Positions 1 through 23,277 of a stretch of DNA of 64,000 nucleotides are shown here, piece after piece. Positions within the stretch are counted from its first letter, which is position 1, and each line of letters starts with the position of its first letter. The stretch spans positions 992,001 to 1,056,000 of the forward strand of contig NZ_CP014231.1 in assembly GCF_001553645.1 (NCBI RefSeq), read 5' to 3'. Position numbers and translations under genes: made by a program. Source of the stretch: Leptotrichia sp. oral taxon 847. GTDB taxonomy: Bacteria; Fusobacteriota; Fusobacteriia; Fusobacteriales; Leptotrichiaceae. Below the pieces are notes generated by a model. The model worked only from the letters and a program-made list of their open reading frames with translations. It was not told the origin of the DNA and did no database searches.

Positions 1-3000
1 AGCCTTTGGTTTTCCATTTTCATCAATTAATTGACTAGCATGTTCAGGTGTTGTAAAAATTACTCTTACATTTTTATATCCCAAATCAGAGTAAGCCTCT
101 TCAAAGGCACTTGCTATTTCTTTTCTTGTTTGTGCAACTTTCAATCTCTCTCCAGCAATATTATTGACTGTTTCAGAAAGTCTAGTTTCTCTCAACTGTC
201 CAAAGAAATTTCTGTTGTCATCTCCTGGGTCATGAATTGAATTATCAAGTGCCTTTGTAACATCCTTTATTTCATCTTTAGCCTTATTCAAATCTTCTTT
301 CAACTTACCAGGATTAGTAGCATACTCAATAGTCTGGCTCTCAATATTAACATTCGTAGAATGATGTTCATCTTTTGTAACTTCATTAGCTTTTGTAATA
401 TCCCTATTTATTGGACTTCCAGAAGCTTCTCCTATTTCTACATTTCCAACTACCGTATTTCTAGTTACTCCCTGTTTATCTCTATCATCTTGATTAAATC
501 CAATATTTGTAACTCTAGGAGATTTTCCTAATGAAGTCCCTACTGAAATTCCTGTTGTTGTCATTGTATCGTAGTTTTGAATATCATGCCCAACATACTT
601 ATCAACTTTAAATGTAGTACCATTTTCACTCTGTTTTCCAATAATAGCTCCAGTATTTTCAACTGTTCCAACATGAAGATTACTTCCCTCTCCAACAATA
701 AAGCTGCTTTGATTATCTACAAATGCTCTACTTCCGCTTGTTCTGCTTCCATTTACATTTAAAGAACTAGGAACTCCATTTGCACTTATTCCTACACTTG
801 CTCCGCTTGATCTTCCAGTTGTCGTGCTTGTGTTCTGTCTGCTTTCTACAACCAGCTTGCCGATATTACCTGTAACTTTTCCGCCTTCCTGGTTAAATCC
901 TGAAAGTGTCATTGTACCAGTATTATTGTGAACTTCATTTACATTTTGAAAATTACCATTTTGATAAATAGTTTCAGTTGTATTCAAATTACTTCTATTT
1001 GCAGAAACACTTCCACCATTTCCAGTAATCTGTGTTCCGTAGCCATATCCAATTGTCGCTCCCGTACTTATTCCAAAGTTTGAACTTCTTGAACTGCTGC
1101 TGTTATGAAGTTCCACTGCTTCCTTCCGAATATTTTTAACATTGTTGTAGATAAATGTTCCGCCTTGTGCCTGTGTCCCCTGATAAGTTATGTTGTTTAC
1201 ATTGTTGTAGGTAATGCTAGAATTTTCATTCATTGGTTTCATTGTCGTAACTACAGCACTTTCATTGTGGGAGTTGTTACTGTTTTTAGAAGTAGAATAT
1301 CCTGCATTTACTCCAATATTTGCATAAAAGTTATTGTTTGCACTCGCATTTCTTACTTCACTTTGACTTAAATTTCCTGTGTGATAAGCCTGTCTTGTCC
1401 CTTGATTCCCTGCAAGTCCTGAAACCATTCCAGTTCCTGCATTTACTCCAGCTACAAGTCCACCTATCGTATCTCCTCTTCTAACTTGCTTTACAGCTCC
1501 AGCTGCTTGTTCCACTCTATCTTTTATTGGACTATTTATTCCAATTGACACACCAAAATTACTGCTTCTTGAAGTAGTTTTTACATCTCTTGTATCAATT
1601 CTTGCACCATATTTTACATCACCATTATTAATCTGAATATTTCCATACTCAAAATTTGTTGCCGTAATTTCTGCTCCGTTATTTAGCACACTTCCATCGC
1701 CAATTCTTAAATTTGATTTGGCATTTATCGTATCTTTTTCATCATAGGTGCTGCTTGACTTTCCATAATTTAATGAAGCCGTTCCGTGACTAATTCCTGC
1801 ACTAAATCCTCTGGATGTATTTTTTTCATAAAAACTATTATGTAATTCTCTCGAATCTGTTGTCAATTTTCCGCCAACAAAGGTATTTTCACCTAAATCA
1901 ATGTTACTTCCGATTCCTGTCAAGTTTCCTTCGATTCTTGCTCCACTAAGCTGTAAATTTCCTGCAACATTTTCTTCCTGATGAGATTTTATGTATGTAC
2001 TGCTTTTAGAAACCGTATTCTTACTTGTCTGTTTTGACTCCAAGTCGTAACTGTTTACAGCGGATTCTACATTCACTTTCCCAATTTTCAGACCTTGTGT
2101 ATCTCCGCCAATAAATGCTGAGCCTGTAAGGTTTAAATCTCCTATTCTTCCTGAAGTAGAATTTGCAGTTACTTCTCCGCCTAAATGTTCTGTTGCACCA
2201 TATTTTGTGTAATTATTGCTGCCCTTGCCGAATTTATCTTCACCGCTTAAAGATAATGCCGATACATTGAATTTATTTACATCAAGTTCAAGATGATTTG
2301 TGTTTAGAATTCCTCCTGTTGACTCATAGCTGTTACCCTTAATAAAAGTTAATCCATTTGAAGAAATTTGCCCAATTGAGCCTATTTCTTCATGCCAGCT
2401 TCTGTCAAACTCGCCATTATTGAATCCTACTTTTCTTTTGGTTGTATTGTTGATTACATTTCCATTTTCAGAAATTAAACCTACAACTTCATTTCCCTTT
2501 ATTTTTCCGCCGATATTTTCAATATTTCCAACTGAACTTATGAAAGTTCTATCTCCTGAAATTTCAGAAAGAAGATTTGTTGTAGTCTCATTTCTCACAG
2601 TATTTGCCTCAACATAGGTAACTCCACCATTACCCCATTTTGTACCATCGTTTACAAAGTCCTTAGTCTTGACATATGTTCCATTTATTCCACCAATTCT
2701 ATTTCTAGTGTCATCGCTTATGCTTTCCCTAGTTCTGCTTGACAAGTAAATTTGCGGTGTCAAAACACTGACTCCATTCACTTCCTTTGAAACATACCAG
2801 ATAATATCTTCATTTAAGGCATTTATCTGATCCTGAGTCAATGCCTGACCGACAACAAGACCAAGCCTTGCCTTTTCATCAGCTGCATTATCCATCATTG
2901 ACTGAATCAATTCCTGATTAGATTTTCCGTTCAAAAAGCTTGTTCCAAGCTTTTCATTTAAAGCTCTTGTTAGCAATTGATTGTACAAAATTTTAGGTAC

Positions 3001-3024
3001 ACTTAATTTTTTAAGATATTGATT
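1..3024 (-). CDS. Headless haemagglutinin-repeat (TpsA/FhaB-like) reading frame, runs off left edge
   Basis: The minus-strand frame stays open from just after a stop codon at 3027-3025 to the window edge, more than 1,000 codons. Its content is typical of the haemagglutinin-repeat part of two-partner-secretion exoproteins: an opening stretch with QALTQDQINAL and DIIWYVSKEV, then many Asn/Gly/Ser-rich beta-helix repeats. A recurring RSSNFG block appears in several of them. The last 150 or so codons before the edge look like a non-repeat pre-toxin region. There is no signal peptide, no TPS secretion domain, and no ATG with a ribosome site near the 5' end. The frame begins in phase directly behind the stop of the lipoprotein gene at 3025. 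It is therefore a truncated gene, an orphan recombination module, or a pseudogene. An internal ATG is possible but unsupported. The family call is firm; whether it is expressed is unknown. Confidence 0.75.
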
Positions 3025-3645
3025 TTATAAATTTTCAATAAGATAATCATATATCTCATGTGCTTCTTCTTGTAATTCTTGTTCATAATACGCATAGTAA
3101 TGTTCTGAAATTTTTTTCATTTTGTAAGTGTATTTTCCGTCAATTATAAATGTAGAAACTCCTTTATAGGTATTTAAAAGTTTATATTCATAAGTATTTA
3201 GAAGTTTATAATTTTCTTGTTTTTTTGCACTATTGTACAATTCTTCAAACGCTATTCTTTCATCTTTTGAATCAGTTATTGAAAAAAAACCTATATTTTT
3301 TTCTTTATCATATAAATAATAACCATCACTTATTTTCTTCAATATAAAATTTTTAGGTAAAGTAACAGTAAAAACTTCATTATTACCTTTGACTTTAATT
3401 TTTATTAATTCTCTTTTCTTTATGGATTCAAAATAATTTTTAACTTTTAAAGGGTTATTTTTTGTAAAAATATTTAATCCATCTACATCTTTTTCTGTTC
3501 TATCACGAGTACAACCATATTCAGCACAATAATAAGTCCCCATTGTCCCCAATAAATATGTTCCTGCCGCTGCTGTTGTTAATAAACAGGAATTTAAACA
3601 AAAAATGCTTATCAATATCAATAATATAAACTTTAACTTTTTCAT
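3025..3645 (-). CDS. Small lipoprotein, second copy of a tail-linked pair
   Basis: This 206-residue protein has a classical lipoprotein signal: MKK, a hydrophobic stretch, then lipobox LNSC at about residue 20. It is probably anchored in the inner or outer membrane facing the periplasm. The mature part holds a CAEYGC motif and a YYLYDKEK block. Both recur in the neighbouring lipoprotein at 3852-4442 (CADHGC, YYLYDKEK), so the two are paralogues. The ATG lies one base after the stop codon of a preceding tail remnant, the same junction as in the first copy. A short internal direct repeat (YKLLNTY twice) is visible at about residues 145-160. Being paired with the C-terminus of a secreted adhesin suggests an immunity or tethering role, but that is inference. 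I do not recognise a named family. Confidence 0.7.
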   Translation of the reverse strand: MKKLKFILLILISIFCLNSCLLTTAAAGTYLLGTMGTYYCAEYGCTRDRTEKDVDGLNIFTKNNPLKVKNYFESIKKRELIKIKVKGNNEVFTVTLPKNFILKKISDGYYLYDKEKNIGFFSITDSKDERIAFEELYNSAKKQENYKLLNTYEYKLLNTYKGVSTFIIDGKYTYKMKKISEHYYAYYEQELQEEAHEIYDYLIENL

Positions 3646-3646
3646 A

Positions 3647-3849
3647 TTAATTACCCACTCTTTCTCTCAACTTTTTTAACTGTTCATTTATATTTTGAGA
3701 TTTTTCTCTATTTATTTCAGGTTTCAGCATATTTACACCTTCATCAAGATTTATATTCTTAGATATGGATTATTTCTTGGAACATTCATAAGTATTTGTC
3801 CTTTCTTTGTTTAATCAAATCTTCCTGTTTTTTAAAGGTATTATCATAT
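3647..3849 (-). pseudogene. Eroded second copy of the adhesin C-terminal tail
   Basis: Reading on from the stop of the upstream lipoprotein gene, the translated fragments match the C-terminal tail encoded at 4444-4790. EYDNTFKKQEDLIKQRKDKY parallels QYENLVNKQKDYQVEFE, VPRNNPY parallels FPRNNSY, and NINEQLKKLRERVGN parallels NINDYLEHLRKRIGE. Frame changes and a stop separate the pieces, so it is a broken copy. It ends one base before the ATG of the second lipoprotein, exactly like the intact tail. It shows that tail plus lipoprotein was duplicated as a unit. Confidence 0.6.
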
Positions 3850-3851
3850 TC

Positions 3852-4442
3852 TTACCATTCTTTAACTAACTCTTTTAAAAAATTCGTAATCTTTTTCTCA
3901 TTTTCAGTGCTTGAGAGTATACCAAAAGTAAAATAAATATCCTTACCTATTCTATTTACATAATCTTTCTCAGAAGGATAAGATTTTGAAAAATAAATAT
4001 GCTCTCCTATTTTATTTATATACTCATTTGTTCCATCTATTACTCCAGTCATTAAATTTTCATTTTTATCTAATCTAAATCCCAAAGGGAAGCCTGTTTT
4101 TTTTTCTTTATCATATAGATAATAATTAATCATATATCCATATCTTCCAAATATATCATCACTATCATGATTGTACTTCATTAATGTCATGTTTTCCGGC
4201 AATAATATTTTCCGTCCTTCAATCTCTACATATTCTTTTTTTCTTTGCAATATTTCTTTTAAGTAATTTTCATACTCCTTTTTATCAAGAACTATATAAA
4301 TTCCTTGTGGATCTTTTTTAGTTGCCTTAGGCATTCCAGTCATCATACATCCATGATCCGCACAGAAACTTGCAAGGGTAAAACAAGAATTTAAACAAAT
4401 CATTGATAATAGTATCAATAATACAAACTTCAAATTTTTCAT
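3852..4442 (-). CDS. Small lipoprotein, first copy, coupled to adhesin tail
   Basis: A lipoprotein of 196 residues begins MKNLKFVLLILLS and carries lipobox LNSC near residue 20. A GTG nine bases upstream is also open, but AGGTG sits six bases before the ATG, so the ATG at 4442 is preferred. The mature part contains CADHGC (about residues 27-32), a YYLYDKEKKTGF segment and a duplicated KIGEHIYFSK / RIGKDIYFTF motif. The start codon lies one base after the stop of the adhesin tail at 4444, which implies translational coupling. It is paralogous to the lipoprotein at 3025-3645. Function is unknown; immunity to, or surface retention of, the adjacent exoprotein tail is plausible from position only. 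Confidence 0.7.
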   Translation of the reverse strand: MKNLKFVLLILLSMICLNSCFTLASFCADHGCMMTGMPKATKKDPQGIYIVLDKKEYENYLKEILQRKKEYVEIEGRKILLPENMTLMKYNHDSDDIFGRYGYMINYYLYDKEKKTGFPLGFRLDKNENLMTGVIDGTNEYINKIGEHIYFSKSYPSEKDYVNRIGKDIYFTFGILSSTENEKKITNFLKELVKEW

Positions 4443-4443
4443 A

Positions 4444-4710
4444 TTATTCACCTATCCTTTTTCTTAAATGTTCTAAATAATCATTGATATTTAATTGTTT
4501 ATTATCCTCAATCTTTTGCTTATTTGGAGCAAAAATCTCTAATTCCTTAATATCATAACTGTTATTTCGTGGAAAATCGGATTTCATTTCTTCTATCAAG
4601 ATATTATTTCTGAATTCTATCAAATCTTCAGGTTTAACCATAGGAATATTTATCAATCTATCTTTCACAACTGTTTCAAATTCAACTTGATAATCTTTTT
4701 GTTTATTCAC
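4444..4710 (-). pseudogene. Adhesin C-terminal tail, final fragment after frameshift
   Basis: An 88-codon stretch rich in charged residues ends in NINDYLEHLRKRIGE and stops one base before the downstream lipoprotein ATG. Upstream of its nominal GTG the same frame stays open to about 4790 (ELYQKWINEK, then FEKQYENLVN). It joins the preceding fragment (4749-5252) if one A is removed from an A-run near 4790. It is therefore the last piece of the broken tpsA-like gene, not a separate protein. No toxin family is recognisable. Confidence 0.55.
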
Positions 4711-4748
4711 TAAATTTTCATATTGTTTTTCAAATCCTTTTTTTACAT

Positions 4749-5252
4749 TTAAATTTTTTTCATTAATCCATTTTTGATATAATTCTTTTTTTCTTTTTCT
4801 ACTTCACGCAACTTATCACTGTATTCAAAAGATTCTGGGAAATATAGTCTATGAGGACTTAATTCTTCTGCTGTTTTCTTTCTTAACTCATTCATAACTT
4901 CTTTTTGAGCCTGTTCTTCTGTCATGTTAGTCTTGCTATTTTCAATTTTTTCTTTAATTTTTTTGTTTATATATTTATTTAAATCATTTTCATTTTTTAT
5001 ATTCTTAATACTCCTTTGAGTTACTACAGTTTTTTTTATTTCATCATCTGTGAATGTTAATATCTCACCGTTATGATTATTTGATTTATTTTTATTATTT
5101 TTATTGAAAAAACTAGGTAATAATAATGTTGTATCTCTTTCTATTGTTGCCAATGCAGAAATATTTTTAAATTTATCTTGAATAAATGTTCTTTGATGAT
5201 TTTCTATTCCTCCCATATTTACGTGTTTTTTTTCAGAAATTGTTCCTTTCAC
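4749..5252 (-). pseudogene. Adhesin tail fragment (third piece of broken tpsA-like gene)
   Basis: A 167-codon piece opens with a nominal GTG (KGTISEKKHVNMGG). The same frame extends upstream through DYKNLGSASNFTDGITS to about 5330, where it joins the 5309-5605 piece by a one-base change in an A/T run. The sequence is hydrophilic and Lys/Asn/Glu-rich with predicted helices (NDLNKYINKKIKEKIENSK). It is presumably the variable C-terminal region of the exoprotein. There is no catalytic motif I recognise. The 3' end is broken by another shift at about 4790. Confidence 0.5.
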
Positions 5253-5308
5253 ACCTAAAAAATATCCATCTTCACTTGTAATTCCATCTGTAAAATTTGA
5301 AGCAGAAC

Positions 5309-5605
5309 CTAAATTTTTATAATCAGCAATGCTACCTTGTTCATAAAAATTTTGTCAGCTCTTGGGCTTCCAGTATGATCCAAAGAAATATTAGAAAAAT
5401 CCATATCTCCATTTTTGATTGACAAATTAACTCCACCTTCAAAATAAAGGTTACCTTGACTATACTGTCTAACATGATACTGTTGATTTGGATTATTTGT
5501 TCTAATTAAAGTATTGTATCCTTTTGCAATTCCTGTTGAAATATTCCCTTTCCCATTAAACAACTTACCAAATATACTTTCCACTCCATCCCAGACACGT
5601 CCCAT
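5309..5605 (-). pseudogene. Adhesin fragment (second piece of broken tpsA-like gene)
   Basis: A 98-codon piece starts MGRVWDGVESIFGKLFNGKG and is open upstream in the same frame (KNREKFEITLTYNPT) to about 5675. There it overlaps the end of the 533-codon haemagglutinin piece in the neighbouring frame, so a one-base shift separates them. The content (NTLIRTNNPNQQYHVRQYSQ, then GSPRADK) fits the region between the beta-helix repeats and the C-terminal tail. At its 3' end the frame is lost in a run of four A followed by five T near 5330. Confidence 0.5.
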
Positions 5606-5649
5606 TGTTGGATTATAAGTTAATGTTATTTCAAATTTTTCTCTATTTT

Positions 5650-7251
5650 TTATTGCATCCTGAGATCTATATTGATTGCATTAGCAGCTCCTCTTTCAAG
5701 TTCTTCGGCCATTCCATTTCCAAACAAGTCCTTTTGATTTTCACTAATAGGAAGATCATCTAATCTTTCAATTTTAGTCATAGACTCTACAGAGTTCCCT
5801 CTTCCTCTTATTGTAATTCCATCAACTTTATTTTCAGTAAAGGCTTTTAAAATAAATTCTCCAACTGCACCATATTGTCCAGATGTAGGAATTAGCCCAT
5901 ATTCTTCATTGTACAATTTAGTATCAATAAAATCCTCAACTTGTCTTATAGTCTTAAATGTTGCTGCTCTAAATGTATCTTCATTACTTTTTCCAGCAAC
6001 AAATTGTGGAATAAATGAAATTTTATCAGTAAAATTACCAATAGTTGCTACATTTTCTGAAATTATCTGATTTCCTTTCCCCCATCCTTTTCTTTCATCG
6101 TTGTAATCTATTCCGATTCTTTTTACTTCTACATCTCTTGTCTTTTCATCAGATTTGGATATATCACGATTTACAGCAACTGTGCCCTGATTAGTAACTA
6201 TTGTTCCATTTCCAATGGTTGCTCTGCTTACTTTTTCCACTTCGCTTCCTGCAAATCCTGCTCCACCATCATTTTCATAACGTTCTACAACATAGTTATT
6301 ATCTTTGTTACCCTTTTGTTTATTTATTATGTCTCTTCTTGTGATATTTGCATTTGCATCCAGTGCCAAGAAATTGTCCTTGCTTACAATGTCATGTGTT
6401 TCAATTTCATTAGCTTTCACAATAAGATTTCCTTTATCAATTCCATTTTCCTCATTTGAAATTTTTGCTCCAGTTAATGTCAATTTATTTCCGACATCTA
6501 CTCTTACACTATTTCTTCCAATTAATGAAGTCTGTTCATTTACCCAGTTCTTATCTCTTGTAGTGTAGTTTAAGCCTCCAACATAGGATTTATTTGCTCC
6601 TGTTACATTTCCGACACCTGTATTTATTCCTGTCTGTCTCATTTTTTCATAATCCTGTAAACTTTCAATTTCCAAATTATTTTTAACACCCACATTTAAA
6701 TTATTTGCTGAAATATTTGCACCTTTTATTGTTCCGTTATCAATTTGAATATTCAAATTATTGGCTGCATCTATTTTTGCATTGTTATATGCATATCCCT
6801 CCATTTTCCCACGATTAATATTTCCTGAAATGGATAAATTTGGATCTAATATATTGTATTCTCCTGAAAGTTCATACGATGTATTTTTATTATTCATAGA
6901 TGATTTAGAAGCCTTTATATCAAGATTTTTTGTTTGAATATTAATATCGTTATATGATTTTATATCAGCTCCTCTTATCCCAATTTTTTCAGTCCCTCTA
7001 ATATTAATATTATTTCCTGCTGTAAGACTAGTTCTTTCAATCGTTCCTTCATTTCCTTCACTTGAAGTTCTGGCTATCGAAGCTTTAGCATAAAGTCCAG
7101 CCTTTCCACTTCCTTCTTTTGGTCCCGCAAACAAGTTATTAAGTCCATTTATTGCTTTTTCACTATCATGAAAAGCTCCTAAAAGATCATCTCCCTTAGC
7201 TAATTTTCTTATAGGCGAAATTAAGTCTTCCAAGTGTCCTAACCTTTCCAA
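5650..7251 (-). pseudogene. Haemagglutinin-repeat fragment of tpsA-like exoprotein
   Basis: A 533-codon frame holds haemagglutinin-type beta-helix repeats (SLTAGNNINIRGTEK, ADIKSYNDINIQTKNLDIKA, NLNIQIDNGTIKGANISANN). A pre-tail segment follows, ending near residue 533. It has no signal peptide and no TPS domain. The frame continues upstream of its nominal ATG (SKTVESFKDYYKGLERLGHL) to about 7300, where it abuts the POTRA part of the tpsB remnant. The 5' half of the gene has been deleted. A single-base shift at about 5670 ends this piece; the next continues in another frame. It would have been exported by the adjacent TpsB, which is also destroyed. Confidence 0.7.
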
Positions 7252-7880
7252 ACCTTTATAATAATCTTTAAAAGATTCAACAGTTTTAGATATGTAAAGT
7301 TATCCGTAGCAGTATCCAGATCTCTTATATTCAACACTTTCCCTCTGTTTTTAGGAAACATAAAAAATTCCTTATACTTGTCGAGTCCATTGCCAGAATT
7401 AATTCTGACATCTTCAATCTTCCCTGCGACAACTTTTAAGTTTAAAGTTCCTGTAGTCAAATCATTTTTATCTGAAACTGTCGCAATACTTGTAATATAC
7501 CCTTTAGAAACTAATTTATTAGTAATTTCAACCAGAATATTTTGAATATCGCTGTTTCCCATTTCCAAATATTCATATTTTTTAAGTATGTTTTTCTTTT
7601 CTTTCTTAGAAAGTAGTTTGTCTTTATCTTCAATATCAATTTCATTTATCAAAAATTTTTTAGAATTTTTATCATCAAAGTTGCTATTTTTATCAATTTT
7701 TGGAACATCATTAAATCTAGTATTTTCAAATTCTTCTTGACTTTTTTGCTGCTCCATCCTGCTTCTTTCCTGCTCAAGCTGTCTTTGCTGAATATCTAAA
7801 ATTTTAGTAGCATCATCAACAGGTGCTGAAAAATTAATAGTGGCTAGGAAAAAAATTAGTATTGTTATATATTTTTTATA
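7239..7880 (-). pseudogene. TpsB (FhaC/ShlB-type) transporter remnant, start lost and barrel deleted
   Basis: From 7757 the frame encodes 172 residues that include a POTRA-type domain (LVSKGYITSIATVS, LNLKVVAGKIEDVRI) ending in RDLDTATDNF. Upstream in the same frame lies an intact signal peptide (KKYITILIFFLATINFSA) and a Gln/Glu-rich linker, as in TpsB proteins. The codon where the start should be (7880-7878) reads TAT, seven bases after AAGGTGG, and an in-frame TAA precedes it. At about 7300 the sequence switches to the interior of a tpsA-like gene, so the beta-barrel is missing. This remnant cannot make a functional outer-membrane transporter. Confidence 0.75.
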
Positions 7881-7927
7881 ATTTTAACCACCTTTTTATT
7901 AAAATTTCAAAAAAAATATTATTTAAA

Positions 7928-7956
7928 AGTATACTCCTCTATTGGTAAATTGTCAA
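7928..7956 (-). promoter_or_regulatory. Sigma-70 promoter of the tpsB remnant
   Basis: TTGACA (7951-7956), a 17-base spacer and TATACT (7928-7933) on the minus strand, about 40 bases before the AAGGTGG ribosome site. It is close to consensus and well kept although the gene behind it has lost its start codon. Confidence 0.75.
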
Positions 7957-8119
7957 GATTTTTTTCAAGACGACGGAATAAGGTAAATTGCAAGAGTATG
8001 ACACTTTTTATAAAATGTTTTGAGAGCGTAAACTTCTTTGTGTAAATAAACTAGAGAATCCTTATATTACTGGACTTTCATATAACATTTACATAAACTA
8101 CTGGACATTTTATAATAAA

Positions 8120-8164
8120 AAAATAAACTATTCTTAATTTTTATATTTAAGAGTAGTTTATTTT
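8120..8164 (-). terminator. Terminator after the OmpA-family gene
   Basis: A long hairpin, arms AAAATAAACTA-TTCTTAA and TTAAGAG-TAGTTTATTTT, lies just past the stop at 8171 and is followed by A/T-rich sequence on both strands. The region from here to 7957 holds no gene that I can support; it has only a short repeated ACTGGAC near 8072 and 8102. Confidence 0.6.
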
Positions 8165-8170
8165 ATTTTT

Positions 8171-8713
8171 TTAACTTTGATTTTCACTGATTTTTATTTC
8201 AATTCTTCTGTTTTTTGCTCTTCCATCTTCGCTGTCATTTGATGCAATAGGATTACTGTCCCCTTTTCCAACTGTTTCAACAATTCTTTCAGGCGCAAGT
8301 CCTAAAGCAATTAATCTTTCCTCAATACTTTCAGCTCTTCTAAGTGACAACTCTTTGTTATAACTTTTTGTCCCTTTTGAATCCGTATATCCAATAATTG
8401 AAATCTTTAAATTTTTATCTTCAATATATTTTTTTACTTTTTCTAATATTGAATTGTACTCATCTTTTATATTTGCACTATTGTAGTCAAAGTTTAGCTT
8501 ATTTGTATCTAATACCAACAAATTTGCTTCATCTTTTTTTGCTTCAGTTACATACGATTCTTCTATATTTTCGGAATTTGTATTATCTACCTCGACAGCA
8601 TCCGTTCTCATAGCATTATCTCTTAAATTTGAAGTTGTTATTTTTTTTGCAGTAGTTGGTGCCGAAACTAATAGCACAGATAACATCGCTGTTACTTTTG
8701 ATTTTTTGTCCAT
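8171..8713 (-). CDS. OmpA-family peptidoglycan-binding outer-membrane protein
   Basis: A 180-residue protein with an N-terminal export signal (KVTAMLSVLLVSAPTTA), a short acidic linker, and a C-terminal OmpA domain over roughly the last 110 residues. The domain shows LNFDYNSANIK, IIGYTDSKGTKSYN, LSLRRAESI and GRAKNRRIEI, the hallmarks of the peptidoglycan-binding fold that grips diaminopimelate or its equivalent. There is no beta-barrel domain, so it is probably a periplasmic or lipoprotein-like anchor rather than a porin. An ATG 21 bases upstream is open, but AGAAGGTG lies inside that extension, seven bases before the ATG at 8713, so I take 8713. A TATAAT at 8774-8779 fits its promoter. It has its own terminator. 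Confidence 0.85.
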   Translation of the reverse strand: MDKKSKVTAMLSVLLVSAPTTAKKITTSNLRDNAMRTDAVEVDNTNSENIEESYVTEAKKDEANLLVLDTNKLNFDYNSANIKDEYNSILEKVKKYIEDKNLKISIIGYTDSKGTKSYNKELSLRRAESIEERLIALGLAPERIVETVGKGDSNPIASNDSEDGRAKNRRIEIKISENQS

Positions 8714-8889
8714 TCTATCACCTTCTCTTCCCATTTATTTCAATTTTATTTTTATTAAATATTCACTGTTCTAATTATACTACATTTCTTTAAATTTTCA
8801 TAGAATTTTTTTTGATTTTTTTTCAATTTCACATATTTAATAAGATAAATAATTTTTATTTTTTAGTATTTTCAAATATTTTAATAAAT

Positions 8890-10602
8890 TTATTTTTCCA
8901 AAAACTCTTCAATAAATTTTAAAACTTCCTCGCTCTTAATTTCCATACTCTTACCAGTTGCTCTCTCTTTAATCTCTACAATTCCACTGGCTGCGCCTTT
9001 TCCAATCACTACTTTTAACGGAAAACCAATCAAGTCGGCATCTTTAAATTTAAAACCAGCTCTTTCGTTTCTATCGTCCAGTACAACTTCCACATTATTT
9101 TCTTTTAATTCATTGTAAATTTTTTCAGCAAATTTTACTTGCGTTTCATCTTTCATATTAGTAATAATCACATCTACAATATACGGTGCAATTGATTTTG
9201 GCCAGATAATTCCATATTCGTCATTTTTTTGCTCAATTACCGCTGACATCAGTCTCGAAACTCCGATTCCATAACATCCCATTAAAATAACTTGCTGCTT
9301 TCCATTTTCATCCAAAACTTTCGCATTTAATGCTTTTGAATACTTATCTCCCAATTTAAAAATGTGTCCAACTTCCATTCCACGAGCAATTTTTAGCACA
9401 CCTTTTCCATCTGGCGAAATATCTCCCGCTCTAGCCGTCCTAATATCAGCAACCACATCATAATGCAAGTCTTCCAAATTAACATTAATAAAGTGATAAT
9501 CCTTTTTATTTGCTCCTAACGCAAAATTTATCACATATTTTACTGTTTCATCAATAACAACTGTAAGTCCTTCTTTTCTCTCATAAGAGCCTGCAAATCC
9601 AGGGACCAATCCAAATTTTTCACATTCTTCTTCTGTCATCATTTCCAATTCCATCGAAGCATTCACTGCATTTTTCAATTTAATTTCATTTACATCCAAA
9701 TCTCCACGAATAAGTGCCAACACATAATTTACCTTATGTTCCAACACTTCCTTCAACATAACCGCTTTAACAGTTTTTTCTTCTGGAATATTCAAAAATT
9801 CTGACAATTCCTTAATTGTCTTGGTATTAGGCGTTTCCACCAATTCTTTCGGTAATTTTTCTTCTGTACTTTCTTTCAATTCAATAATACTTGTAGCTTT
9901 TTCAACATTTGCAGCATAATCTGATGAATCACTATACAAAATATCATCTTCTCCATTTTCAGCAAGTACCATAAATTCATTTGAAGCATTCCCACCAATC
10001 GAACCAGAATCTGCATCAACCGCTCTAAATTTTAGTTCCATTCTTTCCAAAACTCTTGAATAAGCATTTTTCATATTCAAAAATTCCTCATCCAACGATT
10101 CTTTTGTTAAGTGGAAACTATAAGCATCTTTCATTAAAAATTCTCTACCTCTCATTAATCCAAATCGTGGACGCATTTCATCTCTAAATTTTGTTTGAAT
10201 TTGATACAAATTTACAGGCAATTCCTTATACGAACCAATCATATTTCTCACAATATCAGTTACCACTTCCTCATGTGTAGGCCCCAACGCAAATTCTCTT
10301 TCATTTCTATCCTTCATTCTCATAAGTTCAGGACCATAAGCGAACCATCTTCCTGATTCTTCCCAAAGTGAAGCCGGTTGCAAAACTGGCATAAGTATTT
10401 CCTGCGCACCAGCTCTATCCATCTCTTCTCTAACAATTTTTTCAATTTTCTTCAAAACCTTATATCCCAATGGCAAATAACTGTAAACCCCTCTCGTCAG
10501 CTGTCTAATCATTGACGCTCTCAACATTAACTGATGACTCACTACTTCCGCTTCTTTTGGCGCTTCCTTATATGTTTTTAAAAATGCCTTTGATAATCTC
10601 AT
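8890..10602 (-). CDS. proS: Proline--tRNA ligase
   Basis: Prolyl-tRNA synthetase charges tRNA-Pro with proline in the cytosol. The 570-residue length is that of the bacterial (ProS type 1) enzyme with an editing domain inserted between class II motifs 2 and 3. Visible parts are the N-terminal MRLSKAF, motif 1 around EILMPVLQPASLWEESGRW, motif 2 around TKFRDEMRPRFGLMRGREFLMKD, the YbaK-like editing insert at about residues 230-390, and motif 3 CYGIGVSRLM. The C-terminal anticodon-binding domain includes VVLDDRNERAGFKF. An upstream ATG five codons earlier is open, but AAAGGA precedes the ATG at 10602, which gives the usual MRLSK start. It is transcribed alone, behind a terminator and a TATAAT at about 10647-10652. 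Confidence 0.95.
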   Translation of the reverse strand: MRLSKAFLKTYKEAPKEAEVVSHQLMLRASMIRQLTRGVYSYLPLGYKVLKKIEKIVREEMDRAGAQEILMPVLQPASLWEESGRWFAYGPELMRMKDRNEREFALGPTHEEVVTDIVRNMIGSYKELPVNLYQIQTKFRDEMRPRFGLMRGREFLMKDAYSFHLTKESLDEEFLNMKNAYSRVLERMELKFRAVDADSGSIGGNASNEFMVLAENGEDDILYSDSSDYAANVEKATSIIELKESTEEKLPKELVETPNTKTIKELSEFLNIPEEKTVKAVMLKEVLEHKVNYVLALIRGDLDVNEIKLKNAVNASMELEMMTEEECEKFGLVPGFAGSYERKEGLTVVIDETVKYVINFALGANKKDYHFINVNLEDLHYDVVADIRTARAGDISPDGKGVLKIARGMEVGHIFKLGDKYSKALNAKVLDENGKQQVILMGCYGIGVSRLMSAVIEQKNDEYGIIWPKSIAPYIVDVIITNMKDETQVKFAEKIYNELKENNVEVVLDDRNERAGFKFKDADLIGFPLKVVIGKGAASGIVEIKERATGKSMEIKSEEVLKFIEEFLEK

Positions 10603-10694: not shown

Positions 10695-11285
10695 CTATTT
10701 TAAATCATCGTACATCTTAGCCAGTTCAATTGTTCTATTTTTTATCAAATCTGCTATTGTGCCTGAATACAGTACGTTCGCTAAAGTTCCTCCTTCAGCT
10801 TCTTTCGCTGCTTCATTAGCTTTTACTTCTTTATTTTTTACCCAAGCTCTTTGAGTATTTTTCAATTTTTCTTTTTCACCATTAGGCAATCTTTCCATAA
10901 GTAGTTTATACACTTTATTTAACTCAACATCCCACGCTTTATAAAGTTCATCATTTGCATTTACCATCTCTGAAGTTACTCCTGAATCAAGTTTACTTTG
11001 TAATCTTTCTTCCACTTTTTTCATTTTTGCTTTTAGTTCTTTGGTATAATTTCCATTTGATGCCACATTAAAGCTGTTACTTTGATTCTTAGTTTCATTT
11101 CTACCTTTACTATAAGAACTTTCCTGACTTTGAGTTTCTTTTTCTTTTTCATTTTTAGATGCCTGAACTTCTGTAAAATTTCCCGAATCCACCTTTGAAA
11201 TTCTTTCTGTCTTATTTTCTTTACTTCCCTTAGAGCAACTAAGAGCAAAAATTAATACAACTAGAGAAATTACTAGTTTTTTCAT
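10695..11285 (-). CDS. LprI-type (DUF1311) lipoprotein
   Basis: A 196-residue lipoprotein: MKKLVISLVVLIFALSC gives a lipobox cysteine at about residue 17. A Ser/Asn/Lys-rich linker follows, then a C-terminal helical domain with NDELYKAWDVELNKVYKLL, EKLKNTQRAWVKNKE and GTIADLIKNRTIELA. That pattern (D/N-x-x-L-N, then Q-R-x-W) is the LprI domain first linked to lysozyme inhibition; many members have no tested role. The one usual cysteine pair of LprI is absent from the domain. The start at 11285 is chosen because AAGGAG lies nine bases before that ATG and only it gives a proper signal peptide. It is monocistronic, with a terminator at 10656-10686. Confidence 0.8.
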   Translation of the reverse strand: MKKLVISLVVLIFALSCSKGSKENKTERISKVDSGNFTEVQASKNEKEKETQSQESSYSKGRNETKNQSNSFNVASNGNYTKELKAKMKKVEERLQSKLDSGVTSEMVNANDELYKAWDVELNKVYKLLMERLPNGEKEKLKNTQRAWVKNKEVKANEAAKEAEGGTLANVLYSGTIADLIKNRTIELAKMYDDLK

Positions 11286-11380
11286 TTTAACCAACTCCTT
11301 TTTTTGTCTTAATATAGTATATCTTATTTTTTTCAAAAAATCAATTGTTTAAAAAAAAATTAAAATTAAAAATTTTTTAG

Positions 11381-20181: not shown

Positions 20182-22221
20182 TTATTTTCTTCTCCCAAAC
20201 ATTTTATCCAAATCGTTCTTAGTAAGTTTTACAATAATTGGTCTGCCATGCGGACAAGTGTACTTTCCAACTTCATGGATTCTTCTCACCATATTTTGCA
20301 TCTCATCAAAAGATAATTTTTGTCCTGCCTTTACAGCTCCTCTACAGGACATTGAAATAATAATCTTTTCCCTCAAATCCTTTATTTCAACTTCATTTTT
20401 CAAATCGCTCAACAATTTTTCAAAGACATTTTCTGCGCTGTCTCTAAAATCAAAAATCGGTACCGCCCGAATTAAAATCTCATTTTCATAAAATTCGTCA
20501 ATTTCAAACCCAAAATTGTTAAAAATTTCAATATTTTCAAATATAATCTCTTTTTCAATTTGAGTAACTTCCATCTTTTTAGGAATCAAAAGCTGAATTG
20601 AGTCAATTTTTTTCCCATAAAACTTCTCCTTTAACTCCTCGTACAAAATTCTTTCGTGAATGATGTGCTGGTCGTAGATTTCAAGCTCATTGTCTTTTTT
20701 AACCAAAATATAAGTGTCAAAAATCTGTCCTAAAACATCATATTCCACTTGCAATCCAACTTTTTTTTCAAATGTTCCAACTTTATAATTAGAATTTCCC
20801 CCTTGATTTATTTCCAGAATTTCATCATTTTTATAAGGAACTTCACCTTTTACTTTTTCTGTTTTTTCACTTTCAAAATTTTTGCTACTAAAAATTTTAT
20901 CTTCATCTTTTTTATAAAACTCAGTTAAATTAGAATTTTTATTTTGACCTTTATTAAAAATTCTTTCTGGTTCTAGTTTAGACATATTTTTAAACTTATT
21001 ATTTTCTTTAGTTTCATTATTTTTTCTATCATCTTGAGAAAAATTTTTCAATTCTTTATTTTCTTCATTTCTTTTATCGTCTTTTTTTTCTTTATTTTTT
21101 TCTTCACTTTCAATTTTCCCATCAAAAGTCTCAAGACTTAAAAATTTATTCTCTTCAACTGTTGGCACTTCACTTGCAAACAAATCATTTTTTGTACTAT
21201 TTTTTTCATTCAAATTTATATTTTTTTTAATCAAATCAATATTCGGTTGCCAATTTTCTCTGTCAGCGTAATAAAAAAAGTCATCAATCGCTGATTTTAT
21301 TTCACTATAAACAATTTTATCATTGGAAAATTTAACTATTTTTTTGGACGGATGGACGTTGACATCAATTTCTTTTGGGTCGGTGTTATAAAAAATTATG
21401 GCAAAAGGATATTTCCCTTTCATAAGTTTTGTGTAATATCCATCTATTATCGCTCTTTCAATTGTAAGTGATTTTACATATCTGTTATTTACAAAAGTAA
21501 ATAAAAAATCTTTTGTACTTCTCAAAATTTCCACATTTCCTAAATATCCGTACTCAAATTTTTTTAAATTTCTTAAAACCGACTTTCCAAACAATTCCAA
21601 AATCGTATTTTCCATCCCTTTTCCGCTTGTCCTGATAGAATTCTTCCCGTCCAAATCCAGTGAAAAAGCGACACTACTATTTGCCAGAGCCTCTCTTAGA
21701 ACGATTTCCCTAATTTTAGAATATTCCGTGGAAGCCTTTCGTAAAAATTTTTTTCTCGCAGGGGTGTTGTAAAATAAATCTCGCACTTCCACTTCTGTCC
21801 CAACATTTTTTGAGACTTCTTCAAATTTTCTCACAACTCCACCGTAACTTGAAATTTTATATCCTACCAGACTTTCCTTTGTTCTCGTCAAAATCGTAAG
21901 TTTTGAAACAGCGGCAATTGAAGAAAGCGCTTCTCCACGAAAACCGTAAGTATTTAAATTAAACACATCTTCCTTTTTCTCAATTTTAGAAGTGGCGTGT
22001 CGCTCCACCGATAAAAGTGTGTCCTCTTTATCCATTCCGATACCGTTGTCGCTAATTTTGACATCTACCCCCGACTTAAAAACTTCAATTTTAATCATCG
22101 TAGCTTTTGCATCTAAAGAATTTTCAACCATCTCCTTAATCATCGAAGCTGGATTTTCCACAACTTCCCCTGCTGCAATAACGTTAGACACACTTTCGTC
22201 CAAAATTTTTATAATTCCCAA
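20182..22221 (-). CDS. mutL: DNA mismatch repair protein MutL
   Basis: MutL links mismatch recognition by MutS to strand incision. The 679-residue protein begins with a GHKL ATPase domain: MIKEMVENSLDAKATMIKIE with the catalytic Glu, DNGIGM, and TYGFRGEALSSIAAVSKLTI. A transducer domain follows (FVNNRYVKS, INVHPSKKIVKF-like), then a long Lys/Glu/Asn-rich linker at about residues 350-480. The C-terminal dimerisation domain has DQHIIHERILYEELKEKF and the terminal CPHGRP, both parts of the metal-dependent nicking endonuclease of MutL proteins in organisms without MutH. No mutS is adjacent in this window. It heads a unit with rlmH. Confidence 0.94.
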   Translation of the reverse strand: MGIIKILDESVSNVIAAGEVVENPASMIKEMVENSLDAKATMIKIEVFKSGVDVKISDNGIGMDKEDTLLSVERHATSKIEKKEDVFNLNTYGFRGEALSSIAAVSKLTILTRTKESLVGYKISSYGGVVRKFEEVSKNVGTEVEVRDLFYNTPARKKFLRKASTEYSKIREIVLREALANSSVAFSLDLDGKNSIRTSGKGMENTILELFGKSVLRNLKKFEYGYLGNVEILRSTKDFLFTFVNNRYVKSLTIERAIIDGYYTKLMKGKYPFAIIFYNTDPKEIDVNVHPSKKIVKFSNDKIVYSEIKSAIDDFFYYADRENWQPNIDLIKKNINLNEKNSTKNDLFASEVPTVEENKFLSLETFDGKIESEEKNKEKKDDKRNEENKELKNFSQDDRKNNETKENNKFKNMSKLEPERIFNKGQNKNSNLTEFYKKDEDKIFSSKNFESEKTEKVKGEVPYKNDEILEINQGGNSNYKVGTFEKKVGLQVEYDVLGQIFDTYILVKKDNELEIYDQHIIHERILYEELKEKFYGKKIDSIQLLIPKKMEVTQIEKEIIFENIEIFNNFGFEIDEFYENEILIRAVPIFDFRDSAENVFEKLLSDLKNEVEIKDLREKIIISMSCRGAVKAGQKLSFDEMQNMVRRIHEVGKYTCPHGRPIIVKLTKNDLDKMFGRRK

Positions 22222-22299
22222 AAAAATTTCCCCTTTCTTTTTTTACTTTTTAATTTTTTTATTTGAAGAATAGCGGTTCTCCTTTTTTATTTTATAATA

Positions 22300-23277
22300 C
22301 TACAATTCAACAGTTTTACTCACAATCACTTCATATTTTTTAGAAAATATCCTTGCCAATCTCTCCAAATCTTCTTCCAAGCAAAGCACCTTCACATTTG
22401 GTCCCGCATCCATCGTAAAATAACATTTTTCGCTATCCTTATCTCTTAAATTTTTTACAAATTCCATAGCTTTATAAGTTTGAGGTAAAAAATATGAAAA
22501 TGGCGGATTTGCAGTTTCAGTTGTCTTATGCATTCTTAACGCATTTTCTTCCGCTAATTTTCCAACTTTTTCAAAATCATTATCTTGCAAATATTTTTTC
22601 ATATTTTTAAAATCAATTTCCGACTGCTTTATCCACTCTTCAAAATATGTCGAGGTTTTTAAGCAACGTTCCATTCCATCCCGACTAGATACTTCCTTTT
22701 TACTTTTGCTCAAAACTAAGACAATCATCGCCAATTTTAAATCCGTATTTATCTTGTAAATTTTTCCACTGTCCTTGTCCCAAGCGGCAACAGGTCCAAA
22801 AAAACTTCTGGCAGAAGACCCTGAACCATACTTAGAAATTTGTGCCAATTGTTCCTGCGACAAATTTTTTTTGAATAACTTGTTACAGGCTTTGATTACC
22901 GCTGATAATCCGCTTGAACTTGATGAAAGGCCCGCAGCTGTTGGCATATTATTTGTCGTTTTAATTTTAACTTTTTTATTTTTTTCATTTTCTTGCGTTC
23001 TAAACAAATCCACTACTTTGCTAATTTTTTCTGTATGAATTTTATCTTGCAGCTCGCTGTTTAAAAAAAATAAATCTCTAATTCCAGAAAATTTTTCTCC
23101 ATTTTTTTCGACTTCTTTTTTTATTTCCATGTCATCTATAAACCCAATTTCCGTTTCCGTATACAAATCTTTCAAAGTTAAAGAAATACTGCTTGTGGCA
23201 GGTATCATTTTTTTTGCGTCTTTTTTTCCCCAGTATTTTATAATCGCTATATTTGCGTACGACTTCACCTTTTCCAT
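22300..23277 (-). CDS. mvaD: Diphosphomevalonate decarboxylase
   Basis: MvaD converts diphosphomevalonate to isopentenyl diphosphate with ATP, the last step of the classical mevalonate pathway. The 325-residue GHMP-family protein shows SYANIAIIKYWGKKDAKKMI at the start, PATSSISLTL, the ATP loop PTAAGLSSSSSGLSAVIKA, and RSFFGPVAAWDK. YFTMDAGPNVKVL near the C-terminus corresponds to the usual DAGPN motif. The reading frame opens seven codons further upstream, but GGAG precedes the ATG at 23277. It lies 50 bases downstream of the mevalonate kinase gene. Phosphomevalonate kinase is not in this window. Confidence 0.93.
   Translation of the reverse strand: MEKVKSYANIAIIKYWGKKDAKKMIPATSSISLTLKDLYTETEIGFIDDMEIKKEVEKNGEKFSGIRDLFFLNSELQDKIHTEKISKVVDLFRTQENEKNKKVKIKTTNNMPTAAGLSSSSSGLSAVIKACNKLFKKNLSQEQLAQISKYGSGSSARSFFGPVAAWDKDSGKIYKINTDLKLAMIVLVLSKSKKEVSSRDGMERCLKTSTYFEEWIKQSEIDFKNMKKYLQDNDFEKVGKLAEENALRMHKTTETANPPFSYFLPQTYKAMEFVKNLRDKDSEKCYFTMDAGPNVKVLCLEEDLERLARIFSKKYEVIVSKTVEL

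What the first reader, a model, noticed from the sequence alone, without database searches (positions are those of the whole stretch)
3025..4790. Tandem 'adhesin tail + lipoprotein' cassettes
Two copies of the same module lie in tandem: an unrecognised Lys/Glu-rich tail (intact end at 4444, eroded copy at 3647-3849) followed after exactly one base by the ATG of a paralogous lipoprotein. Both junctions read TAAT-ATG. Shared tail words are NIN(D/E)...L(R/K)(K/E)R(I/V)G and (F/V)PRNN(S/P)Y. This is how toxin/immunity or exoprotein/anchor pairs are organised, but the tail matches no toxin family I know and the partner is a lipoprotein. It may be an undescribed secretion-linked pair, for example immunity at the periplasmic face. 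That role is inference; the duplication is visible in sequence.
Basis: partly seen in the sequence, partly recalled or inferred. Interest (0 to 1): 0.75.

Follow-up and report, generated by a model that had tools for sequence, protein, structure and literature searches.

The report
Secreted hydrolase toxin with lipoprotein immunity
In these bacteria a worn-out pair of gene cassettes probably encodes a secreted enzyme that attacks rivals' membranes together with the matching membrane-anchored protein that protects kin; intact copies in related species suggest a little-known weapon of this bacterial group.

Summary
In detail: two lipoprotein genes each start one base after a related tail (TAA-T-ATG), and both tails match one tail of another Leptotrichia genome. 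The tail is the last ~100 residues of a larger C-terminal domain (CT) of a two-partner-secreted protein. In intact relatives the CT has invariant Ser(-Gln), Asp and His in alpha/beta-hydrolase order and faintly resembles lysin B/cutinase esterases; no Pfam or NCBIfam family matches credibly. A CT profile matches, in whole or part, 14 of 98 Fusobacteriia genomes (6 of 29 genera). Of 21 lipoprotein places found by lipoprotein similarity in the genus, 18 keep the tail end one base before the ATG; 27 cassettes in four genera pass a stricter filter. Tail and lipoprotein types co-vary (Mantel r 0.65, 0 of 5000 shuffles). Cassettes form tandem orphan arrays, and none of five other TpsA C-termini at home is followed by a lipoprotein. 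Best reading: a polymorphic (CDI-like) lipase/esterase toxin with envelope lipoprotein immunity; here the effector is broken while the lipoproteins are open. It would work like T6SS Tle/Tli but use two-partner secretion. Activity, killing and immunity are inferred. New variant of a known kind.

The parts
3025..3645 (-). lipoprotein A (206 aa, lipobox LNSC), predicted orphan immunity protein
   Evidence: few differences from the G012 copy (2 synonymous, 3 non-synonymous)
3647..3849 (-). eroded tail remnant: 40 open codons ending ...LRERVGN-TAA, older remnants in other frames upstream
3852..4442 (-). lipoprotein B (196 aa, lipobox LNSC), predicted cognate immunity protein of the hydrolase-like CT
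   Evidence: dN/dS 0.18 against the G012 copy
4444..4803 (-). C-terminal tail of the effector (119 open codons plus stop), one base before lipoprotein B
4752..5354 (-). effector piece in another frame; carries stretches that correspond by eye to the invariant Asp and His of intact relatives
   Evidence: residues 4752-5252 alone match none of the other 12 genus genomes
5312..5680 (-). effector piece in another frame; carries YSQG (predicted nucleophile Ser) and the following GSP
   Evidence: E 1.8e-25
5653..7299 (-). 3' part of tpsA: hemagglutinin repeat, then the start of the hydrolase-like CT (GNGM stretch, to about 5892)
   Evidence: Fil_haemagg_2, E 2.7e-17; E 4.3e-9
7242..7883 (-). truncated tpsB: POTRA domains only, running into tpsA
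   Evidence: (POTRA_2, E 1.1e-15; POTRA_3, E 9e-8)

Best explanation
The two cassettes are orphan effector/immunity modules of a polymorphic, contact-dependent-inhibition-like system carried by two-partner secretion. Intact forms: TpsB exports TpsA; its C-terminal domain is a predicted alpha/beta-hydrolase (lipase or esterase; Ser in x-[YHF]-S-Q-[GAS], then Asp and His) that reaches a neighbouring cell and hydrolyses envelope lipids; kin are spared by the cognate lipoprotein, anchored in the envelope where the enzyme acts and translated from the same message (stop and start within a few bases). New cassettes enter by recombination, with the conserved 3' tail as one boundary, leaving older lipoproteins behind as an immunity archive. 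In this genome the effector is broken and tpsB/tpsA truncated, so only immunity (at least lipoprotein B, under purifying selection) is likely to work. Shown: gene pairing, co-variation, arrays, invariant residues, broken frames. Inferred: hydrolase fold, substrate, delivery, inhibition.
For: Invariant S, D, H in 8 of 8 aligned CTs; S in 15 of 15 and D in at least 90% of the wider set. Profile matches in 14 of 98 genomes, 6 of 29 genera (some are tail-only, and the profile was built from five of these genomes); one CT as single query reaches 6 of 98. 18 of 21 lipoprotein places keep the junction; 27 cassettes pass a stricter filter. Co-variation r 0.65, 0 of 5000 shuffles, also when shuffled only within three taxon groups. 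Nine-cassette array in G084, arrays in Fusobacteriaceae. 0 of 5 other TpsA C-termini at home followed by a lipobox protein; one has a SUKH partner. Intact tpsB-tpsA-lipoprotein on L. hongkongensis plasmid pJMUB5056. Lipoprotein B dN/dS 0.18 though the effector is broken. Fold leads: lysin B and cutinase-like protein aligned at YSQG (E 0.062 and 1.3), hhalign 58%.
Against: No fold evidence passes a usual threshold. PDB matches are E 0.06 or worse, with unrelated chains between them (RecA at E 1.1; NHE-RF3 at 1.2-1.3). Pfam FSH1 (serine hydrolase) reaches E 0.0074 in 1 of 15 members, but clearly unrelated families score as well or better (PADLOC Csm3 E 0.00093 in 1 of 15; NCBIfam cas7 E 0.005; Pfam PP2C_C E 0.0026 for a window piece). 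The AlphaFold model of one CT has pLDDT 38.7. The Gly two before the Ser is not conserved (G, A, F, T, L, W or M; Q in the window), and the His is not aligned in all of the wider set. With the wider alignment 1 of 200 column shuffles beat the observed hhalign score. Most genus cassettes hold only a tail remnant, so their pairing with a hydrolase rests on relatives. 11 of 27 cassettes do not have the same nearest neighbour for tail and lipoprotein. Several lipoprotein frames are broken (three in G084; one in G072). No toxicity or binding was tested.
Confidence: 0.68

Rival explanations
1. The lipoprotein is not an immunity protein but an accessory factor for secretion or anchoring of TpsA, like BcpO of Burkholderia CDI loci (in some species a predicted periplasmic lipoprotein, needed for BcpA function).
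For: Strict adjacency to tpsA 3' ends would also fit an accessory; BcpO precedent (PMC5422565, passages read).
Against: At home lipoproteins follow only this CT type (0 of 5 other TpsA C-termini); they co-vary with CT type, are repeated with CT fragments in arrays, and persist where hardly any effector is left.
Confidence: 0.12
2. Toxin/immunity pair, but the CT is not a lipase: an alpha/beta-hydrolase or other fold acting on another envelope target (for example a cell-wall ester), or a pore former.
For: Only local profile similarity to esterases; low-confidence model; lysin B itself is a cell-wall lipid esterase (recalled).
Against: Invariant Ser-Asp-His order; SQG context like the XHSQG motif of Tle3 phospholipases (PMC9860674, passages read).
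Confidence: 0.3
3. The lipoproteins are ordinary lipoproteins caught beside decayed TPS genes; the pairing is a relic of one old insertion and the lipase reading is spurious.
For: Effector broken here; many genus cassettes hold only tail remnants; three similar lipoproteins lack a tail.
Against: Same arrangement with intact effectors in other genera and another family; several dissimilar lipoprotein types that co-vary with CT type.
Confidence: 0.05
4. The hydrolase-like CT acts on host cells rather than rival bacteria, and the lipoprotein protects the producer.
For: Two-partner-secreted proteins can act on host cells (PMC5422565, abstract listing), and some Tle phospholipases act in both kingdoms (PMC9860674, passages read).
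Against: Arrays of many orphan lipoprotein genes and fast lipoprotein diversification fit conflict between bacteria better.
Confidence: 0.08

Closest known systems
CDI / polymorphic toxin systems with orphan CdiA-CT/CdiI cassettes (two-partner secretion)
   Same: TpsB/TpsA carrier, variable C-terminal domain, partner gene immediately downstream, orphan cassettes in tandem (PMC5422565, passages)
   Different: The partner is a lipoprotein. In the survey PMC3482391 (section 33 and passages read) Imm65 is called the only immunity protein of that collection that appears to be a lipoprotein, and it pairs with Tox-JAB-1.
Type VI lipase effectors Tle1-4 with Tli immunity (for example Tle3/Tli3)
   Same: Predicted Ser-Asp-His hydrolase with SQG context (Tle3: XHSQG); immunity proteins usually periplasmic or lipoproteins, genes in tandem (PMC9860674, passages)
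   Different: C-terminus of a two-partner-secreted protein, not delivered by a type VI apparatus; no detectable sequence membership
Tox-ABhydrolase-1/2/3 toxin domains (PMC3482391)
   Same: Alpha/beta-hydrolase toxin domains in polymorphic toxins
   Different: No match of the scanned CTs to DUF2235 or another hydrolase family at a Pfam cut-off; immunity partners listed there (SUKH, Imm66, Imm69) were not found here
Mycobacteriophage lysin B / cutinase esterases
   Same: YSQG elbow followed 34-35 residues later by G[S/T/N]P, then a conserved Asp and a PHxY-like stretch (that these are the catalytic residues of lysin B is recalled)
   Different: Match limited to about 70 columns, probability 58% against the lysin B profile, 44% against one sequence

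Membership tests
Polymorphic toxin / CDI-type two-partner system | TpsB transporter with POTRA domains | tested here: met
   POTRA_2 and POTRA_3 in the truncated window copy; a gene annotated ShlB/FhaC/HecB family beside the intact pJMUB5056 tpsA
Polymorphic toxin / CDI-type two-partner system | TpsA with TPS domain and hemagglutinin repeats | tested here: inconclusive
   Repeat present in the window copy; the four TPS-domain matches at home all lie elsewhere, so this copy lacks it; not tested on pJMUB5056
Polymorphic toxin / CDI-type two-partner system | Cognate partner gene directly after the variable C-terminus, co-varying with it | tested here: met
Polymorphic toxin / CDI-type two-partner system | Known pre-toxin motif before the CT | tested here: not met
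   No Pfam pre-toxin family in the pieces of hydrolase-type TpsA that were scanned; PT-TG only in the neighbouring TpsA fragment and one other home TpsA
Polymorphic toxin / CDI-type two-partner system | Toxicity to cells without the partner, neutralised by the partner | not testable with these tools
   needs bench work
Type VI lipase effectors (Tle/Tli) | Ser-Asp-His triad with GxSxG or XHSQG | tested here: inconclusive
   S, D, H invariant in 8 of 8; first Gly of GxSxG not conserved
Type VI lipase effectors (Tle/Tli) | Delivery by a type VI apparatus | tested here: not met
   The intact forms are C-termini of long two-partner-type proteins; no search for type VI genes was made
Tox-ABhydrolase-1 (DUF2235) | Match to the family profile | tested here: not met
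   15 members scanned against Pfam, no DUF2235 among the families listed up to E 1
Alpha/beta-hydrolase, cutinase/lysin B group | Significant profile or fold match | tested here: inconclusive
Bacterial lipoproteins | Signal peptide with lipobox Cys | tested here: met
   Simple pattern, no dedicated predictor; Pfam LPAM_1 above cut-off for one partner (L080); residue after the Cys is never Asp (0 of 27)

The most novel reading that the evidence does not exclude
Fusobacteriota carry an undescribed class of two-partner-secreted effectors whose toxic tip is a lipase-like hydrolase working in the target's envelope, each paired with a dedicated lipoprotein immunity protein. Recombination anchored in the conserved tail builds arrays of orphan lipoproteins, a standing archive of immunity that outlives the weapons.
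Probability: 0.48. Interest if true: 0.75.

Novelty: new variant of a known kind. Interest (0 to 1): 0.57.

Why it matters
It gives testable candidates for antagonism among Leptotrichia and Fusobacteriaceae; the listings of five literature searches in an open-licence library showed no title or abstract about such a system there, though most of the listed papers were not opened. It would add a lipase-like, lipoprotein-neutralised module to two-partner secretion, and it offers arrays in which immunity is kept while the effector decays.

Tried and rejected
Family libraries: Pfam, NCBIfam and PADLOC gave no credible family for the CTs, tails or lipoproteins scanned; the chance-level matches are listed under evidence against. 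PDB by sequence with one intact CT-containing frame: nothing. Phage records and viral contigs: nothing. Plasmid records: one, pJMUB5056. Bacterial genome contigs: the first scan confirmed no relative, the second found one record, a Fusobacteriaceae MAG contig. Structure: lipoprotein model pLDDT 52.3 and CT model 38.7, both too poor; the CT model's best PDB match is a cutinase at E 0.027, with none at 0.001 or better, and I give it little weight. Alignment A3 of the Fusobacteriaceae CT with window pieces was visibly misaligned and not used.

Considered and set aside: the tail as the toxin (it lies outside the predicted active site and is often all that remains). A Shine-Dalgarno role of the tail end is plausible (it stays when only about 6-8 tail codons remain), but low synonymous variation along the last ~43 codons fits recent recombination as well, so it is not claimed. 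Rows dropped before counts: the filter required an ATG start, a lipobox pattern, a 40-codon upstream frame and a gap of -4 to +12, so it left out shorter remnants, broken lipoproteins, and lipoproteins whose start overlaps the CT stop by about 11-14 bases (L115, L116). The gene after the CT of L117 lies beyond the contig end; L120 (weak match, E 3.6e-4) was scanned but not examined further. The de-replication step removed none.

Full report
What is there. The window lies at 992001-1056000 of a 2.19-Mb single-contig genome; one genome of the same genus carries a 23-kb contig that is plasmid pJMUB5056 of Leptotrichia hongkongensis. On the - strand, two lipoprotein genes (3025-3645 and 3852-4442) each begin one base after the stop of a related reading frame, TAA-T-ATG. 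The upper frame is the end of a TpsA-type protein. Its pieces lie in different frames (4447-4803, 4752-5354, 5312-5680, 5653-7299) and upstream a tpsB reduced to its POTRA domains runs into it. The lower frame is a 40-codon remnant with older remnants beyond it. So the finding is real; the effector is broken by its frames and by the truncation upstream, while both lipoproteins are open. That the frame breaks are not sequencing errors cannot be shown here.

The pair elsewhere in the genus. Lipoprotein A and B each have matches in 9 of 13 genus genomes, home included, the upper tail also in 9 of 13. The piece 4752-5252 alone matches only the home genome (1 of 13). I checked 22 lipoprotein places: the 21 distinct ones plus one beside a tail match (G006). 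In 18 of the 21, and in the added one, the upstream frame ends in the tail end (such as ...RERVGN) with the stop exactly one base before the ATG, even where only about 6-8 tail codons are left. Three (lipoprotein E 1e-7 to 7e-6) have no tail.

The effector domain. In intact relatives the tail is the end of a C-terminal domain of several hundred residues. Aligning eight of them (A1) leaves as invariant an NG pair, a G..D..E..GK block, Ser-Gln, a Gly 34 residues after the Ser, an N..D pair and a His. Fifteen members from wider sources (A5) keep the Ser-Gln in all and the Asp in at least 90%, but the His is not aligned in all. The window pieces keep counterparts by eye: YSQG in 5312-5680, and N..D and SPHRLY in 4752-5354. 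This is the order of an alpha/beta-hydrolase triad. Direct fold evidence is weak. The profiles find phage lysin B and a cutinase-like protein aligned at YSQG (E 0.062 and 1.3; E 1 and 1.8), but RecA (1.1) and NHE-RF3 (1.2-1.3) stand between them. One member of 15 touches Pfam FSH1, a serine hydrolase, at E 0.0074, while unrelated families reach 0.00093 (Csm3) and 0.005 (cas7). Profile against a nine-sequence lysin B profile gives 58% and score 39-40, against 0.1-0.2% for reversed columns, with 0 of 200 column shuffles reaching it for A1 and 1 of 200 for A5.

Spread. A profile of A1 matches 14 of 98 genomes of the class, in 6 of 29 genera; five of these genomes supplied its rows and some matches are tail-only. 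A single CT as query reaches 6 of 98. In another genus of the family (G084) about 16 kb hold nine complete or partial CTs, each followed by a lipoprotein start adjacent to or overlapping the stop; six of the nine lipoproteins are open, three broken. In Fusobacteriaceae-type genomes CTs with WHSQ, FSQG or AHSQG are again followed by lipoproteins of other sequence types, several in tandem in L114 and L115; the partner is beyond the contig end in L117, and in L081 it starts right after the stop but its frame is broken. An intact tpsA (3251 aa), its lipoprotein and a ShlB-family gene lie together on plasmid pJMUB5056 (tpsB and tpsA meet across the record's start).

Pairing test. Twenty-seven cassettes in four genera pass a filter for an ATG-started lipoprotein at -4 to +12 bases from an upstream frame of at least 40 codons; observed gaps run from -4 to +5 and, by eye, all 27 upstream frames end in a tail or CT of this family. 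Similarity of the last 60 tail residues and of the lipoproteins correlates with r 0.65, 0 of 5000 permutations as high, also when permuting only within three taxon groups; within Leptotrichia r 0.52 (n 14, 0 of 5000), within G084/G085 r 0.98 (n 7, 3 of 5000), within the Fusobacteriaceae group r 0.87 (n 6, 21 of 5000). Nearest neighbours agree in 16 of 27, so in 11 they do not. Relatedness of tandem copies inflates such a test; the pair shared by pJMUB5056 and the large contig of another species (tail 87%, lipoprotein 68%) does not depend on tandem copies. Only loci already fetched through these families were used, so the count is not a survey.

Specificity. The home genome has four TPS-domain matches in long open frames (2820-3246 aa). 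The CT profile finds nothing at home outside the window locus. One of the four is followed by a SUKH-type protein, a known immunity family. Neither these four nor the neighbouring TpsA fragment (window 1-3024 and on beyond the window's start, where PT-TG lies) is followed by a lipobox protein: 0 of 5, all starts within 400 bases tested. So at home lipoproteins go with the hydrolase-like CT, not with TpsA in general.

Evolution. Between home and G012, lipoprotein B has 17 synonymous and 15 non-synonymous changes (dN/dS 0.18), so it is under purifying selection although its effector is broken at home and reduced to 26 open tail codons in G012; lipoprotein A has too few changes (2 and 3) to say. 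Among six cassettes sharing a tail type, in all 15 pairs the last 86 tail codons have lower dS and lower dN than the adjacent lipoprotein. Different histories across one base suggest recombination near the junction. The tail may serve as a recombination anchor and perhaps as the lipoprotein's ribosome-binding region; both are inference.

How it most likely works. TpsB exports TpsA; its hydrolase tip attacks lipids of a neighbour's envelope; the lipoprotein, made from the same message, blocks it in kin. That the residue after the lipobox Cys is never Asp (0 of 27) would fit outer-membrane sorting by the rule known for E. coli (recalled). All functional steps are inferred.

Compared with what is known. 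Organisation: orphan CdiA-CT/CdiI cassettes (PMC5422565, passages) and polymorphic toxins in general (PMC3482391, section 33 and passages). [quoted passage not shown] PMC3482391 names one lipoprotein immunity protein in its collection, Imm65, with a different toxin. I did not find this combination in print; the searches were made, of which I saw the listings, plus passages of PMC6555100 and the papers just named. So: it would work like Tle/Tli, is organised like CDI, and by sequence I can file it under neither lipase family.

Noticed in passing
window 1-3024 (- strand), continuing beyond the window to L038:10921: A second TpsA-like fragment, by eye, with pre-toxin PT-TG in the part beyond the window's start and a different C-terminus, followed by a non-lipoprotein gene; further C-terminal fragments and possible immunity genes lie beyond it.
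   Followed up: partly
home genome, L140-L143: Ends of four long TpsA genes with other C-termini; one is followed by a SUKH-type protein, and orphan C-termini lie downstream of some (by eye).
   Followed up: partly
L044, L045, L046, L047, L065: tails against adjacent lipoproteins: The last 86 tail codons are less diverged, also at synonymous sites, than the lipoprotein one base away, in 15 of 15 pairs.
   Followed up: yes
L045:7060-7485: A small protein with its own apparent signal peptide ends in a stretch that matches the first part of the hydrolase-like domain (7252-7482, E 8.4e-12): a separately secreted or truncated variant.
   Followed up: no
L144 (pJMUB5056), 34-10345 and 21259-23067: A 23-kb plasmid, typed as non-mobilizable, carries an intact tpsA, its lipoprotein and a ShlB-family gene.
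   Followed up: partly
window 10698-11288 (- strand): Predicted lipoprotein with an LprI lysozyme-inhibitor domain (Pfam E 1.5e-16).
   Followed up: partly
L114 and L116: The same arrays hold other C-terminal fragments with an H-E-[FL]-G-H stretch, possibly metallopeptidase toxins (by eye).
   Followed up: no
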